In this document: positions 12,175-16,772 of the stretch, in pieces
Layout of the letters: every line of letters starts with the position of its first letter
Position numbering within the stretch: the stretch's first letter is position 1
Source: Paracoccus sp. (in: a-proteobacteria)
GTDB lineage: Bacteria > Pseudomonadota > Alphaproteobacteria > Rhodobacterales > Rhodobacteraceae
Assembly (NCBI RefSeq): GCF_030536915.1
Contig: NZ_JAUNPC010000016.1
Location: 9,133 to 43,859 of the forward strand
DNA length: 34,727 nucleotides
Direction of reading: 5' to 3'
Translations under genes and position numbers: made by a program
Notes under the pieces: generated by a model
What the model saw: the letters and a program-made list of their open reading frames with translations, nothing else
The model's database searches: none
What the model was told of the DNA's origin: nothing

Positions 12175-12192
12175 AATTGCCAGTTGGCAATT
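12175..12192. repeat. Putative parS palindrome (copy 1, downstream of rep)
   Basis: This 18-base site has perfect 8-base arms (AATTGCCA and TGGCAATT) around a central GT. It overlaps the last base-pair of the rep stop codon. The same core, ATTGCCARTTGGCAAT, recurs twice just after parB (15980-15995 and 16013-16032), so the copies bracket the whole rep-ori-par cassette. Repeated palindromes close to parAB are typical ParB-binding centromeres. The palindrome itself is seen directly; the parS role is inferred. Confidence 0.75.
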
Positions 12193-13241
12193 CAGATCGG
12201 ATTGCCCTCGGCATAGCGGCGGAAGAAGGCCAGGAAGGCGCGGTCGGGGTCCTGCGGAGGCTCTTTCCCCTGGGCCCAGGCGCGCCATTCGCCTTCGACG
12301 AAATAGATGTCATAGCCGGGATGGCGCAGGCGCGCCGTCTCGTAGGTTTCCGTCAGCAAGGGGGCGCCTCGGCTTTCCAGCCAAGCGGGACGCGGGCGCA
12401 GGCTTGCGGACCCCTGCCCGGCCGGGGGCTGCGGCGCCGGGGCCTCGGCCTTCCGTGCCGCCTCGTCGGCCCTGGCGCGGCGGCCGACCTTCGAGAATTG
12501 CAGCGCCCGGTCGGCCGCCCCCGAGGCATCGCCGTCCTTGCGCCACCAGCGCAGTTCCACATGCGTGACCGCCCTGCCCGTCTTGACAGGCAGGATCTCG
12601 ACCATGAAATCCGACAGCGCGTTCACCTCGGCCACCGCCGGGTCGATGGCGCGCAGCTTGAGGTTCGACCAGGACGACAGCTTCCCCCGGGGCACGCCGA
12701 TGATGCCGCGGAAGCTGTCCAGCGCGAAACGCTCGGACGCCTTCCAGCGCAGGTTGCCGCGCTTCTGCACCATCTCGTACAGCGTCAGCGCGTATTTCGA
12801 TGACAGCGCGAACATCACCTCGCGCTGCAGCCGGGCAAAGACCTGGCTGTTGCGGATGATCTTGCGCAGCCGCGCCGGGATCTCGTATTCCAGCAATCCA
12901 TCGGCGCGCCGGCTTTCAAGGTTGCCGCCCAGCAACTGCACCCGCTCGATCGCCGGCTCGCCGTCCCGGTCCACAGCGACCTTGACGATCGCCGACATCA
13001 GCCGTTCGAGGCTTTCGCCGACTCGGTCGTTGGAATTGTGGTTTCCCCGCAGCGCCGACTTGGCGATCACATGCGTCACCGGCTTGTCGATGGCGTCCCA
13101 GGCGTTTTCCAGAAGCTGGTTGTAGATGCGCCGGTCATTCAACGTCAGCGGCGTCACCTCGACCAGATCGACCAGTTCGCCGGGCTTGATGAGGCTTTCA
13201 GCATTGGGCCGCGCCTCCACCGTGCGAATCGCTGTTGTCAT
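12192..13241 (-). CDS. Plasmid replication initiator, Rep_3 superfamily (winged-helix)
   Basis: This 349-residue protein carries the Rep_3 signature. LVEVTPLTLNDRRIYNQLLENAW (about 26-48) begins the first winged helix, and REVMFALSSKYALTLYEMVQKR follows near 140-161. A second winged-helix region includes FRGIIGVPRGKLSSWSNLKLRAIDPAVAEVN. The C-terminal 90 residues are Ala/Pro/Arg-rich with an aromatic end. I start at the ATG at 13241, which has a GGGGCAAGG leader; an upstream TTG at 13298 would begin inside the operator-like repeat. Such proteins bind iterons as monomers to open the origin, and as dimers to repress their own gene. It is transcribed away from parAB with the origin between them. 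Confidence 0.92.
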   Translation of the reverse strand: MTTAIRTVEARPNAESLIKPGELVDLVEVTPLTLNDRRIYNQLLENAWDAIDKPVTHVIAKSALRGNHNSNDRVGESLERLMSAIVKVAVDRDGEPAIERVQLLGGNLESRRADGLLEYEIPARLRKIIRNSQVFARLQREVMFALSSKYALTLYEMVQKRGNLRWKASERFALDSFRGIIGVPRGKLSSWSNLKLRAIDPAVAEVNALSDFMVEILPVKTGRAVTHVELRWWRKDGDASGAADRALQFSKVGRRARADEAARKAEAPAPQPPAGQGSASLRPRPAWLESRGAPLLTETYETARLRHPGYDIYFVEGEWRAWAQGKEPPQDPDRAFLAFFRRYAEGNPI

Positions 13242-13260
13242 GGCCTTGCCCCGTCGAATT

Positions 13261-13288
13261 CTTACCTGACTATCGCGAGGCGGGTAAG
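13261..13288. promoter_or_regulatory. Inverted repeat upstream of rep, probable autoregulatory operator
   Basis: The arms CTTACC (13261-13266) and GGTAAG (13283-13288) face each other across 16 bases, 20 bases upstream of the rep ATG at 13241. The arm sequence GGTAAG is the right half of the iterons found at 13413-13454. In Rep_3 systems an inverted pair of iteron halves in the rep promoter is the dimer-binding operator. The repeat is directly visible; the autoregulation is inferred. Confidence 0.6.
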
Positions 13289-13311
13289 TCTTCAACAAGG
13301 CAGCGTGCGTT

Positions 13312-13520
13312 GCACCCGAAAAGTAAGCAACGGCTTGACAGTGGAAACAGAGGTGATTCGCAGAGGACTGTATTCATTGAGAAAACAAGCCGGTCCCTGC
13401 GGGTTTTAGGTCACACCCGAAAGGTAAGCCTTGCGCCCATCCCGGAAGGTAAGCCATGCCATCCCGATCCGTAAGGACAAGGCACCCGAAACGTAGCCCA
13501 AGGCATCCCAAGAAGTAGGA
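13312..13520. repeat. Iteron array of the plasmid origin (one isolated and five tandem copies)
   Basis: The unit is about 17 bases, consensus CAYCCCGAAAGGTAAGCC. One copy stands alone at 13312-13328. Five more begin at 13414, 13438, 13460, 13483 and 13504, spaced 24, 22, 23 and 21 bases apart, about two helical turns, so the bound faces align. Copies 13414 and 13438 are the best matches; the last two are degenerate. The array lies between rep and parA and leads into an AT-rich stretch and a DnaA box. This is the classic layout of an iteron-controlled origin recognised by a Rep_3 initiator. Confidence 0.85.
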
Positions 13521-13613
13521 ATAAATAGGAATTATTGTTTCTTCTCCGTGTTTTGCACCATATGAACAGAGAACAAGAAGAATCTAGAACAAGAGAAGAG
13601 TTTTTTATCCACA
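13521..13613. other. Putative origin unwinding region (AT-rich) ending in a DnaA box
   Basis: From 13521 to 13607 the sequence is strikingly AT-rich for this replicon, with runs such as AATAAATAGGAATTATTG and GAACAAGAAGAATCTAGAAC. It ends at TTATCCACA (13605-13613), a perfect match to the consensus DnaA box. Next to the iterons this fits the DNA-unwinding element of oriV. The boundary of melting cannot be fixed by eye. Confidence 0.75.
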
Positions 13614-13833
13614 GGGTTTGAAATGGATCAGACTGCCAGGATCTGGGATATCTTACAAATCGGGATGCCTGATCGCTCGCGACGTGCCGAAAGCAAAGCT
13701 GGATGCCCTGAAACTCCGCTCATGGGCTGCGGAGACCCGACTTACGCTTTCTCAAGCCTGCACACTTGCAAGACCGAACTTTACCACAAGGGCATGCCGG
13801 TGCATGGTCGCCCGCAAAGCAAGGAACAGGATC
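13614..13833 (+). promoter_or_regulatory. Leader and presumed promoter region of parAB
   Basis: These 220 bases separate the DnaA box from the parA start. The frame of parA stays open across them, but the good ribosome-binding site (AAGGA, 13821-13825) lies just before the ATG at 13834. I therefore read the stretch as untranslated. It should hold the parAB promoter. I could not identify clear -35/-10 elements, and no palindrome of the parS type is present. Confidence 0.45.
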
Positions 13834-15033
13834 ATGGACAGCGTTCTGCCTCCCGTCACACTGGACGAACTTTCCGTTCTCAGCCGCCGCGCCGCTACCG
13901 TGATCGAGCGGCTGCGCGAGCGCGTCTTCGCCCCCGGCACGCAGAAGCAGCTGGACCTGCGCTTCAACGTCCGCACCGCGGCCGAGATGGTCGGACGGTC
14001 CGAAAAGGCGATCCGCGATGCCGAGGGCGACGGGCGGCTGCCATCCCCCGACAAGGACGAGGACACCGGGCGCCGCCGCGGCTATTCGCTGGCCGACATC
14101 GCCCGGATGCGCGAGGTCTTCGGCACCCTGCCGCATCGCGCCCCCGAGGACCCTCCGCTGGTTCTGGCCGTGCAGAACTTCAAGGGCGGCGTCGGCAAGT
14201 CCACGGTCGTCACGCACCTGGCGCAGTATTTCGCGCTCAAGGGCTATCGTGTCTGCATCATCGATTGCGACAGCCAGGCCTCCAGCACCGCCGTCTTCGG
14301 GCTGAACCCCGACGTGGACGTGGATGAAGAGGAAGACACGCTTTATCCTTTCCTGCGCCATGGCGGCCCGAAGACGCTGCATTACGCGTTGCGGGCGACC
14401 TATTGGCCCGGCATCGCGATCATCCCGGCGAACCTCGGCCTTTACGATGCGGAATATGAATTCGCGGCCCGGATGGCGCGTGACCCGGCCTTCATCCTCG
14501 ACCGGCTGCGCGAAGGGGTGGACAGCATCGCCGACCAGTTCGACATCATCCTGCTGGACCCGCCGCCCGCGCTGGGGATGCTGTCGCTGTCGGTGCTGCG
14601 GGCCGCGAATGCGCTGCTGGTGCCGGCGCCGCCCAACAACATCGACTTCGCCTCGACCGCGCATTTCCTCAAGATGCTGGAGGCGACGCTGGCGGAACTC
14701 TCGCGCCACGGGGGCGAGCGGCAGTACAGCTTCGTCAAGATCCTGACCTCGAAGATGAACGAGCAGAAATCGGCGCATCAGGCGATCAAGCGGATGATGG
14801 ACGCGGTCTTTCCCCAGGACATGCTGATGGCGGTCCTGAAGGACAGCGCCGAGATCGACAATGCCAGCGCCAACCTGATGACCGTCTATGAGATGACTGG
14901 CGCCGCCACCCGGACCGAGACGCACAAGCGCTGCCGGGCCTATCTGGACGCCGTGGGTCGCGAGGTCGAATTGCTGGCCCGCAAGACCTGGCCCAGCCAT
15001 CACCGCGATCTGCGCAAGGAGGGACTGCTGTGA
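13834..15033 (+). CDS. parA: ParA-type partition ATPase with N-terminal DNA-binding domain
   Basis: This 399-residue protein has the large (type Ia) ParA layout. Residues 1-100 form a helix-turn-helix region (NVRTAAEMVGRSEKAIRDAEGDGRLPSP, then RRRGYSLADIARMREVFG). The deviant Walker A motif follows as FKGGVGKST, with K117 and K122. The A' box is CIIDCDSQASS (D144, D146), and the Walker B-like strand is FDIILLDPPPALG. Such proteins bind ATP and nonspecific DNA to move ParB-bound plasmid copies apart, and they often repress their own operon. The start at 13834 follows AAGGA at 13821-13825. The stop overlaps the parB GTG in a GTGA tetranucleotide. Confidence 0.95.
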   Translation: MDSVLPPVTLDELSVLSRRAATVIERLRERVFAPGTQKQLDLRFNVRTAAEMVGRSEKAIRDAEGDGRLPSPDKDEDTGRRRGYSLADIARMREVFGTLPHRAPEDPPLVLAVQNFKGGVGKSTVVTHLAQYFALKGYRVCIIDCDSQASSTAVFGLNPDVDVDEEEDTLYPFLRHGGPKTLHYALRATYWPGIAIIPANLGLYDAEYEFAARMARDPAFILDRLREGVDSIADQFDIILLDPPPALGMLSLSVLRAANALLVPAPPNNIDFASTAHFLKMLEATLAELSRHGGERQYSFVKILTSKMNEQKSAHQAIKRMMDAVFPQDMLMAVLKDSAEIDNASANLMTVYEMTGAATRTETHKRCRAYLDAVGREVELLARKTWPSHHRDLRKEGLL

Positions 15034-15974
15034 GCAAGCGCCACAACGCGATCTTCGACGACGTCTTGCGCGACATGGACGACCCGGCGCCTGCGGCGGA
15101 AAAGGGCGGGGCGCGGTTCCTCAAGCGTTCGAACGCGCTGGCCGACAGCGGCACGCGCGAGGAAAAGGTGCTGCGCTGGGTCGATCCCGCCACCTGCGTG
15201 ATGTGGGAACGCCACAACCGCGCCTATGACCTGCTGAACGAAACCAACTGCCGCGAGCTGATCGACAGCATCCGCGCCCAAGGCCAGCAGGAGTTCCCGG
15301 CCATCGTCCGCCGCCGTTCGGGCGAAGGGGCGGATTACGAGGTGATCTGCGGCGCCCGGCGGCATTTCGCGATCTCTTGGCTACGCGCCAACAACTACCC
15401 TCAGTTCCGCTATCTGGTCGAGGTCCGCGACCTCACCGACGAGGAGGCCTTCCGCCTTGCCGATATCGAGAACCGCGACCGGGCGGATCTGTCGGATTAC
15501 GAGCGGGCGCGGGACTATGCCCGCGCCCTGGATCTTTACTACGGCGGCAAGCAGAAGGCGATGGCGGCGCGGCTGGAGGTGTCAGAGGCATGGTTGTCGC
15601 GCTATCTCTATCTCGCGCGGCTGCCCGAAGTCGTGGTCCGCGCCTGGCCGCAGATCACCGACCTCAAGGAACTGCACGCCCGTATCCTGCGGCCGCTGCT
15701 GTCGGATGCCGGGGACCGGGTGCTGGCCGAGGCCGGCGCGATCGCCGCCGAGCAGGACCGGGCGCGGGCGGGACAGGGGGCCTTCATCCCCGTTCCCCGC
15801 GTCCTGTCACGGCTAAAGGCGGCAATCGCGCCCGCCGCCAACCCCGCGCCGCCCTTGGTCAGACTGCGGGTCCGCGAACGGGGGCGCGAGGTGACGCTGC
15901 AGTTCGACCGCGACATCGACGAGCCAACGCTGCGGGCGGAACTCGACCGCTTCCTTGCGGAACGGTTCGGCTGA
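15030..15974 (+). CDS. parB: ParB-type partition protein
   Basis: This 314-residue protein has a ParB N-terminal nuclease-fold domain with the nucleotide-binding motif CGARRHFA (107-114). ENRDRADLSDYERARDYARAL (147-167) follows, then a helix-turn-helix near 174-197 (KQKAMAARLEVSEAWLSRYLYLAR). The last 80 residues should form the dimerisation end. Known family members bind parS palindromes and spread or slide with CTP. It starts with GTG at 15030 behind a strong AAGGAGG (15017-15023), and is translationally coupled to parA. Two copies of the palindrome lie directly after its stop codon, with a third behind rep, and these are its likely targets. Confidence 0.95.
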   Translation: MSKRHNAIFDDVLRDMDDPAPAAEKGGARFLKRSNALADSGTREEKVLRWVDPATCVMWERHNRAYDLLNETNCRELIDSIRAQGQQEFPAIVRRRSGEGADYEVICGARRHFAISWLRANNYPQFRYLVEVRDLTDEEAFRLADIENRDRADLSDYERARDYARALDLYYGGKQKAMAARLEVSEAWLSRYLYLARLPEVVVRAWPQITDLKELHARILRPLLSDAGDRVLAEAGAIAAEQDRARAGQGAFIPVPRVLSRLKAAIAPAANPAPPLVRLRVRERGREVTLQFDRDIDEPTLRAELDRFLAERFG

Positions 15975-15979
15975 GGGAA

Positions 15980-15995
15980 ATTGCCAATTGGCAAT
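15980..15995. repeat. Putative parS palindrome (copy 2, just after parB)
   Basis: ATTGCCAATTGGCAAT is a perfect 16-base palindrome starting five bases after the parB stop. It shares the core ATTGCCARTTGGCAAT with copies at 12175-12192 and 16013-16032. Its start lies 35 bases from the same point in copy 3. The ParB-binding role is inferred. Confidence 0.78.
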
Positions 15996-16012
15996 CCAAG
16001 CTCGACTATCGG

Positions 16013-16032
16013 AAATTGCCAGTTGGCAATTT
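16013..16032. repeat. Putative parS palindrome (copy 3)
   Basis: The site has perfect 9-base arms, AAATTGCCA and TGGCAATTT, around a central GT, 20 bases in all. It is the longest of the three related palindromes and lies between parB and the toxin-antitoxin pair. The ParB-binding role is inferred. Confidence 0.78.
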
Positions 16033-16089
16033 CTCAGATGGCCGGACTGCAAGGGCGTTTCCCTGAGCTTGCACAAGCCCCGGCCAGGC

Positions 16090-16122: not shown

Positions 16123-16362
16123 ATGCGCATCACCATCAAGGGGCAGGTCACGATCCCGCAGCCCATTCGGGATGCCGCCGGTTTCCATCCGGGGACCGAG
16201 GTCGATTTCGTGCTGGGCGATGACGGGCTGGTGCGGGTGATCGCCTCTGACCGGCTGCGGGCCGAACGTGCGCAGGCCGTGGACAGCGCCATCGCGCGGC
16301 TCAGGGGCAGCGCCGATGCCGGGATGACCACGGACGAGATCATGGCCCTGACCCGCGGATGA
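16123..16362 (+). CDS. Antitoxin, SpoVT/AbrB-type (VapB-like)
   Basis: This is a 79-residue protein whose first 45 residues are the swapped-hairpin AbrB DNA-binding domain (MRITIKGQVTIPQPIRDAAGFHPGTEVDFVLGDDGLVRV). The tail (about 46-79) would wrap and neutralise the toxin. The ATG at 16123 follows AGGGG at 16111-16115. Its stop overlaps the toxin start by ATGA, the usual arrangement that keeps antitoxin in excess. It lies directly beside the partition block, as expected for an addiction module that stabilises the plasmid. Confidence 0.9.
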   Translation: MRITIKGQVTIPQPIRDAAGFHPGTEVDFVLGDDGLVRVIASDRLRAERAQAVDSAIARLRGSADAGMTTDEIMALTRG

Positions 16363-16772
16363 CGCCGGTCCTGGTCGATTCCAACATCCTGATCGACATT
16401 GCCACCGACGACCCCCGATGGGCCGCATGGTCGGCCGCGGCGCTGGCGCGGGAAGGGCAGGGGGCGCGGCTGGTCATCAACCCGCTGATCTATGCCGAGG
16501 TTTCGGTCGCCCATGCCCGGATCGAGACGCTGGATACGCTGCTGCCCGAGGAAGTCTTTGCCCGCGAGCCCCTGCCATGGGCGGCGGGCTTCCTTGCCGG
16601 CAAGGTCTTTGTCGCCTACCGCCGCCGGGGCGGCGCCCGGCGCTCTCCGCTGCCCGATTTCTACATCGGCGCCCATGCCGCCATCCGGGGCTACCGCCTG
16701 CTGACCCGCGACCGCAGCCGCTATGCCGGCTATTTCCCCAAGGTCGAACTGATCGCGCCCGAAGACCCGTGA
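16359..16772 (+). CDS. PIN-domain ribonuclease toxin (VapC-like)
   Basis: This 137-residue protein is a complete PIN domain. The four acidic residues that hold the metal ions are visible: D7 (VLVDSNILID), E47 (NPLIYAEVSV), D100 (SPLPDFYIGAHA) and D118 (LLTRDRSRY). VapC toxins cut tRNA or rRNA when the antitoxin is lost. The gene is the second of a two-gene operon. Nothing suggests that it is inactivated. Confidence 0.9.
   Translation: MTPVLVDSNILIDIATDDPRWAAWSAAALAREGQGARLVINPLIYAEVSVAHARIETLDTLLPEEVFAREPLPWAAGFLAGKVFVAYRRRGGARRSPLPDFYIGAHAAIRGYRLLTRDRSRYAGYFPKVELIAPEDP

What the first reader, a model, noticed from the sequence alone, without database searches (positions are those of the whole stretch)
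12175..16032. Three copies of one palindrome bracket the whole replication-partition cassette
The core ATTGCCARTTGGCAAT occurs at 12175-12192 (overlapping the rep stop), 15980-15995 and 16013-16032 (just after parB), each with perfect arms of 8 or more bases. I noticed no other copy elsewhere in the window. Sites on both outer edges of a 3.8-kb rep-ori-par unit suggest a ParB complex that could loop or coat the whole cassette. The outer copies are also direct near-identical repeats that could let the unit move or be swapped by recombination.
Basis: partly seen in the sequence, partly recalled or inferred. Interest (0 to 1): 0.75.

Follow-up and report, generated by a model that had tools for sequence, protein, structure and literature searches.

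The report
Plasmid centromere sites bracketing replication cassette
The repeated palindrome is most likely the plasmid's centromere, the DNA site its ParB protein grips to share plasmid copies between daughter cells, and in most of the related replicons examined one copy sits at each outer edge of the replication-and-partition unit.

Summary
ATTGCCARTTGGCAAT occurs at 12176-12191, 15980-15995 and 16015-16030 and nowhere else in the window or the 3.16-Mb draft genome, even with 2 mismatches. The cassette is Rep3 initiator (-), iteron origin, parA-parB (+). In 42 distinct replicons a palindrome lies within about 105 bp of the parB stop in 42 of 42, and a second at the rep stop in 27 of 42; 12 of the other 15 carry two copies after parB. 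DNA similarity stays within 5 bp of the outer palindromes for 42 of 44 entries compared. The site follows ParB, not Rep: two replicons without this Rep keep it. Its centre covaries with ParB residue 215: Arg in 12 of 12 replicons with a C-type centre (one of them mixed), never Arg in 30 with an A-type centre. Residue 215 aligns with SopB Arg219, needed for sopC binding. Best explained as parS of a SopB-like ParABS system. Looping is untested; recombination has no specific support. In passing: one chromosome (Rhodobacteraceae bacterium NBU2976) has a lone ParB relative and 57 scattered sites.

The parts
12175..12192 (.). palindrome copy 1 (rep-edge parS candidate), AATTGCCAGTTGGCAATT, last base overlaps rep stop codon
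   Evidence: rep-edge site in 27 of 42 replicons
15980..15995 (.). palindrome copy 2 (parB-edge parS candidate), perfect 16-mer 5 bp past parB stop
   Evidence: parB-edge site in 42 of 42 replicons
16012..16033 (.). palindrome copy 3 (second parB-edge copy, 35 bp from copy 2 start to start), GAAATTGCCAGTTGGCAATTTC
   Evidence: the sister plasmid L004 also has two parB-edge copies
12192..13241 (-). rep, Rep3-family initiator (349 aa from ATG 13241; the open frame runs to TTG 13298)
   Evidence: Pfam PF01051 30.9 bits (cut-off 22.4) and PF21205 44.8 bits (cut-off 21.1); start by alignment
13312..13504 (.). iteron-like direct repeats (ACCCGAAAGGTAAGCC type, 4-5 copies), probable oriV between rep and parA
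   Evidence: sequence
13834..15033 (+). parA, Walker-type partition ATPase (399 aa; KGGVGKS motif)
   Evidence: Pfam AAA_31 101.2 bits; TIGR03453 267.8 bits, below its cut-off 348.45
15030..15974 (+). parB, centromere-binding protein (314 aa), SopB-type HTH; Arg191 and Leu215 are the presumed base-reading positions
   Evidence: PF18090 SoPB_HTH 48 bits (cut-off 27); TIGR00180 97.2 bits (cut-off 58.45); alignment to SopB; model

Best explanation
The palindromes are parS centromere sites of a SopB-like (type Ia) ParABS system that maintains a low-copy Rep3-type replicon of Paracoccus. A ParB dimer binds each 16-20-bp palindrome through its helix-turn-helix (Arg191) plus a second reading position (residue 215) that senses the central base pair. 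From there ParB is expected to load as a CTP-dependent clamp, spread into flanking DNA and be moved by ParA. The family usually carries at least two sites, either one at each outer end of the rep-ori-par unit or two in tandem after parB. Shown by comparison: site, layout, conservation, link to ParB, covariation. Inferred: binding, CTP loading, spreading, segregation, and any advantage of bracketing (ParB loaded at both edges of the unit).
For: (1) parB-edge site in 42 of 42 distinct replicons; rep-edge site in 27 of 42, all of which also have the parB-edge site; at least 2 sites in 39 of 42. (2) Conservation covers the 16-mer plus 1-3 bp each side and falls to background beyond. (3) On 16 whole plasmids (46-672 kb) the general core TTGCCNNNNGGCAA occurs 40 times, 31 at the cassette and 9 elsewhere, never more than one elsewhere per plasmid; 6 of those 9 have a non-palindromic centre. 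(4) Exact ATTGCCARTTGGCAAT is listed in 13 of 31 family genomes with this ParB and in 2 of 363 without. (5) All 28 genomes with this Rep also have this ParB; ParB occurs without this Rep in 3. Two of these keep the palindrome after parB: L109, whose initiator is of the RPA type, and L107. (6) ParB residue 215 is Arg in 12 of 12 replicons with a C-type centre and Leu/Val/Ser in 30 of 30 with an A-type centre (L015's mixed centre was counted as C, G362 left out). (7) Residue 215 aligns with an Arg of SopB that is position 219 by counting from the construct SopB(155-323), and invariant Arg191 with SopB Arg195. SopB R219A is used because it loses specific binding to sopC but keeps non-specific binding (PMC7205306, passages). 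(8) 16 further Paracoccus loci not in the first set: 16 of 16 have the site within 50 bp of the parB stop.
Against: No binding data. The C-type centre changed 3-4 times on the ParB trees, but a single origin is not rejected (p-AU 0.195), so the covariation may rest on few events; only 1 independent pair lies on well-supported branches. Besides 215, ParB column 165 also separates the two types perfectly, and so does Rep column 176, so perfect separation alone does not single out ParB 215. One Paracoccus locus with Leu215 (L205) and one replicon with Arg215 (L015) have mixed centres, C on one half and A on the other. L012 and its relative L213 have a degenerate parB-edge site, ATTGACAGGTGGCAAT. 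Two Pseudosulfitobacter plasmids have a same-type copy away from the cassette. Two genomes have an exact site but no ParB of this kind (G120, G189; not followed up).
Confidence: 0.9

Rival explanations
1. The palindromes are operators or initiator sites bound by the Rep protein (or by ParA as autorepressor), not by ParB.
For: One copy lies at the rep stop in 27 of 42 replicons; one Rep column (176) also separates the two centre types perfectly.
Against: They lie at the 3' ends of rep and parB, not in the rep/parA promoter region, which has its own iterons. They persist after parB in L109 (different initiator) and L107, from genomes without this Rep at E <= 1e-60. 15 of 42 replicons lack the rep-edge copy, and 13 of those 15 (all but L107 and L109) have the Rep gene in place.
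Confidence: 0.04
2. The palindromes are transcription terminators or mRNA hairpins at the ends of rep and parB.
For: They sit just past two stop codons. In the window the two parB-edge copies can pair into a strong hairpin (-49.5 kcal/mol, z -7.3).
Against: The rep-edge copy folds little better than shuffles (z -1.1; 25 of 200 shuffles fold at least as well). The terminator scan found none at any copy. 28 of 42 replicons carry a single parB-edge copy, so the long hairpin cannot form there. Base identity, not just pairing, is conserved.
Confidence: 0.03
3. The outer copies are recombination sites that let the rep-ori-par cassette move or be exchanged as a block.
For: DNA similarity between this cassette and those of other replicons stays within 5 bp of the outer palindromes for 42 of 44 entries; tyrosine recombinase genes lie just outside the cassette in L009 and L018.
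Against: Selection on a functional unit gives the same boundaries. About 19 bp of identity is short for homologous recombination (recalled). 15 of 42 replicons lack the rep-edge copy. No junction or empty site was seen, but the look was small: 16 records share part of the right flank (15 listed), their junctions were not examined, and the left flank was not searched.
Confidence: 0.03

Closest known systems
F plasmid SopABC (type Ia ParABS)
   Same: ParB has the SopB HTH (PF18090 above cut-off); SopB structures match the model at TM 0.80-0.81 over the target; palindromic site downstream of parB; the covarying residue lies at the SopB R219 position.
   Different: 1-2 copies after parB, not the tandem array of 43-bp repeats of sopC, and in most members one copy beyond the divergent rep gene; different site sequence.
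repABC replicons of Rhodobacterales
   Same: parS tends to lie in the repB-repC intergenic region and directly downstream of repC, that is, after the ParB gene and after the initiator gene (PMC9040568, section 7 read). The same rule of placement holds here.
   Different: Here the initiator is Rep3, divergent from parAB rather than in one operon; the RepA/RepB models score below cut-off (TIGR03453, TIGR03454).
Bacillus Noc and chromosomal ParB/Spo0J (CTP clamps)
   Same: Noc is the best solved-structure match by sequence profile (1.5e-16) and the top row of the fold search; the ParB carries GARRHFA, which fits the CTP-binding motif GxRRxxA (motif recalled).
   Different: Adjacent ParA and Rep genes; sites confined to the cassette in the window's genome.

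Membership tests
ParABS partition system, SopB-like (type Ia) | Walker-type ParA ATPase gene directly upstream of parB | tested here: met
   AAA_31 101.2 bits; KGGVGKS in the translation; parA and parB overlap by 4 bp
ParABS partition system, SopB-like (type Ia) | HTH-type ParB | tested here: met
   PF18090 48 bits, cut-off 27; ParB_N 24.6 bits, just under its cut-off 26.3; TIGR00180 97.2 bits, cut-off 58.45; fold search
ParABS partition system, SopB-like (type Ia) | conserved palindromic site near parAB | tested here: met
   42 of 42 replicons
ParABS partition system, SopB-like (type Ia) | ParB binds the site; site needed for stable inheritance | not testable with these tools
   needs EMSA/ChIP and plasmid stability assay
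Rep3 (iteron) replicon | initiator with the two winged-helix Rep3 domains, and iterons | tested here: met
   PF01051 and PF21205 above cut-offs; direct repeats at 13312-13504
repABC replicon | repA-repB-repC in one operon with RepC initiator | tested here: not met
   initiator is Rep3, divergent; TIGR03453 267.8 against cut-off 348.45 and TIGR03454 58.5 against 201.5

The most novel reading that the evidence does not exclude
The ParB-palindrome pair of this plasmid family has at least once left the plasmid and become a chromosome-wide system. In Rhodobacteraceae bacterium NBU2976 (G362) a lone ParB relative (52% identical in the match; no parA or rep found beside it) coexists with 57 exact ATTGCCNNNNGGCAAT sites over both contigs, and on the main contig their clusters are more evenly spaced than chance. 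This may be an independently evolved Noc-like or chromosome-organising CTP-clamp network, for which the conserved two-site plasmid parS would be the ancestral state.
Probability: 0.35. Interest if true: 0.8.

Novelty: new member of a known kind. Interest (0 to 1): 0.5.

Why it matters
It gives a sequence-defined centromere candidate for the Rep3-type, ParAB-bearing replicons of Rhodobacterales. The 14-base core was in no paper text of the searched library, but figures, supplements and most subscription journals are outside it. It supplies a natural set of A-centre and C-centre ParB-site pairs in which one residue, equivalent to SopB R219, can be tested as the specificity switch that may define partition incompatibility groups. 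The recurring layout (site after parB, site after the initiator gene) in two unlike replicon types asks why centromeres flank the replication unit.

Tried and rejected
Terminator reading: rejected. Rep-operator reading: rejected. Mobile-cassette reading: not supported; the right-flank search found 16 records sharing parts of it, of which only L004's record is among the cassette records I fetched; their junctions were not examined. Sphingomonad and Amaricoccus relatives (L134-L143, ParB about 47-56% identical) have no exact TTGCCNNNNGGCAA after parB (the single copy found, in L138 at 4232, is upstream of parA), so the palindrome is not traced beyond the family; their own parS was not found. ParB columns 187 and 186 were weaker correlates of centre type than 215. 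A search for further C-type replicons gave none that were new (5 of 147 genomes, all seen before). Independent-pair test: only 1 pair on well-supported branches, so no significance can be claimed. Paper searches for a published parS of this plasmid type found none in the listings and passages seen. The pTAV3 replicator paper (Microbiology 2002) was seen only as a citation in PMC6209633; I did not try to fetch it.

Full report
OBSERVATION. Copy 1 (12175-12192) and copy 3 (16012-16033) have a GT centre inside 8- and 10-bp perfect arms; copy 2 (15980-15995) is a perfect 16-mer. With three mismatches allowed nothing else in the window matches; shuffles give 0.25 matches on average against 6 strand-matches seen. 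In the 3.16-Mb draft genome the only matches with up to two mismatches are these three. The draft is 86% complete, so a further copy in unassembled DNA cannot be excluded.

SURROUNDINGS. The unit reads: palindrome, rep on the minus strand (Rep3 domains above cut-off), an intergenic region with iteron-like repeats at 13312-13504, parA and parB on the plus strand, palindrome, palindrome, then a MazE/AbrB-like antitoxin and a PIN toxin gene (16123-16362 and 16359-16772). ParB has a SopB-type HTH above cut-off and matches the general ParB model.

COMPARISON. A ParB search of PLSDB found 3,312 records, 137 with at least 80% coverage in one place. I fetched 16 of the 60 listed, chosen for diversity (other ends of five circular records). 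A search of 394 family genomes, nearly all one per genus, found ParB at E <= 1e-40 in 31. Larger regions were taken for 29 of the other 30 (the split copy in G139 was left out). Gene borders were set with tblastn. All 42 have a palindrome within about 105 bp of the parB stop (56 sites; 14 replicons have two). 27 of 42 have one at the rep stop (gap -1 to +63 bp). The 15 without it are L014, L015, L019, L094, L096, L097, L098, L100, L102, L106, L107, L108, L109, L110 and L112; 12 of these have two parB-edge copies and 3 (L015, L109, L110) have one. Layout, scored for the bracketed and tandem members only, changed at least four times on the ParB tree. The rule is therefore 'at least two sites', met by 39 of 42, most often as a bracket. 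Per-column information shows a site of about 18-20 bp with unrelated flanks.

SPECIFICITY TO THE CASSETTE. On the 16 complete plasmids TTGCCNNNNGGCAA occurs 40 times: 31 at the cassette and 9 elsewhere, at most one per plasmid; reversed controls total 2. Of the 9, six have a non-palindromic centre, one is TTGCCCGCGGGCAA on an A-type plasmid, and two are same-type copies on the two Pseudosulfitobacter plasmids. In the 394 genomes the exact motif was listed in 15: 13 with this ParB (one of them G362) and 2 (G120, G189) without. Pairwise DNA similarity of the window to 44 other entries (two of them duplicates) stays within 5 bp of the outer palindromes in 42. The exceptions are L004, which is the same plasmid in Paracoccus sp. 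MC1862 and aligns throughout, and a 20-bp stray match in L006. In many entries the similarity ends earlier, inside the 3' part of parB. So the palindromes are the outermost shared bases of the unit.

WHICH PROTEIN. All 28 genomes with this Rep (E <= 1e-60) also have this ParB. ParB lacks it in three: G162/L109 has an RPA-type initiator (PF10134, 319 bits), G311/L107 has no such Rep in the stretch read or the genome, and G362 has neither Rep nor ParA found beside it. L107 and L109 keep the parB-edge palindrome. Sorting replicons by the central bases, A-type (GCCAATTGGC and near variants) against C-type (GCCCATGGGC and variants; the mixed centre of L015 counted as C), ParB residue 215 is Leu 28, Val 1, Ser 1 against Arg 12. 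ParB column 165 also separates the two types completely, and so does Rep column 176. In the HMMER alignment residue 215 faces the Arg in SopB ELSARSGDAL. Counting from the construct SopB(155-323) named, that Arg is 219, the residue whose change to Ala prevents specific binding to sopC in PMC7205306 (passages). Our invariant Arg191 faces SopB Arg195 by the same count. In the AlphaFold model (mean pLDDT 77.7) residue 215 is just before helix 216-226; the fold search lists Noc, ParB, KorB and SopB structures. Arginine reading a G:C pair is the simplest account, but a single origin of the C-type is not rejected (p-AU 0.195). Mixed centres exist with both residues: L015 with Arg, L205 with Leu. In an added set of 23 Paracoccus loci (the split pair L215/L216 of G515 was left out), 7 repeat earlier entries; all 16 new ones have the site near the parB stop, all have Leu215, and in 15 of 16 the copies within 50 bp have no C-type half. 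That set holds no Arg215 case and so does not test the Arg rule.

MECHANISM. Best reading: ParB dimers bind the palindromes as parS, load as clamps and are driven by ParA. Loading, spreading and ParA action are taken from known ParB biology, not tested. Placing one loading site at each edge would put the whole replication unit between two ParB entry points; that bracketing helps partition or copy control is a guess. [quoted passage not shown]

LITERATURE. The 14-base core is in no paper text of the held library. Searches listed papers on Rhodobacterales plasmids. A passage read in PMC3910554 describes palindromes as possible partition anchors for RepABC-9 modules. Passages in PMC3832669 give a parS of 13-bp repeats for a different, type Ib system. 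Passages in PMC3925955, PMC6209633 and PMC9025767 gave no parS for the Rep3 type. I did not read those papers whole, and I did not read the subscription papers on these replicons.

SIDE FINDING. In G362 (Rhodobacteraceae bacterium NBU2976 by a 100% protein match) ATTGCCNNNNGGCAAT occurs 57 times exactly, 44 on the main contig and 13 on the second, with 0 in the reversed control. The other 12 genomes of its genus have 0 to 5; they were not searched for ParB. In the 19 sites read, identity is confined to the palindrome plus 1-2 bp (arms fixed by the search), which argues against a mobile repeat; 9 of 19 lie inside an open frame of at least 100 codons. The 29 clusters on the main contig are more evenly spaced than random draws with a minimum spacing (CV 0.54 against means of 0.93, 0.89 and 0.83; P 0.0004, 0.0008 and 0.0034 for merging at 2, 5 and 10 kb; the test was chosen after seeing the positions). 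The largest gap, 243 kb, is not unusual. The lone ParB relative (331 aa, SopB HTH above cut-off) has three sites around its gene. Its residue 215 is Gly, and ACGT is the commonest centre among its sites. A VirB-like regulator or a Noc-like factor are both possible.

Noticed in passing
L133:6001-6996 (Rhodobacteraceae bacterium NBU2976, = G362:C1:178732-179727): Lone chromosomal ParB relative with no parA or rep found beside it, in a genome with 57 exact ATTGCCNNNNGGCAAT sites, whose clusters on the main contig are more evenly spaced than chance. Possible domesticated Noc-like or VirB-like system.
   Followed up: partly
window 16123-16772: MazE/AbrB-like antitoxin and PIN/VapC toxin gene pair directly after the parB-edge palindromes; a 79% identical stretch lies near the start of a 1.16-Mb Paracoccus aminovorans plasmid record.
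   Followed up: no
L109 (G162:C68): Same parAB family and parB-edge palindrome next to an RPA-type (PF10134) initiator: the partition module paired with a different replication initiator.
   Followed up: partly
NZ_CP085162.1:59585-59598 and NZ_CP087024.1:53439-53452: Third copy of the C-type site away from the cassette in both Pseudosulfitobacter plasmids; its context was not read.
   Followed up: no
L205 (G506:C36) and L015: Mixed-centre sites (ATTGCCCATTGGCAAT type), one with ParB Leu215 and one with Arg215: possible intermediates between A and C site types.
   Followed up: no
G120:C7:389152 and G189:C2:459233: Exact palindrome in genomes without a ParB of this kind at E <= 1e-40.
   Followed up: no
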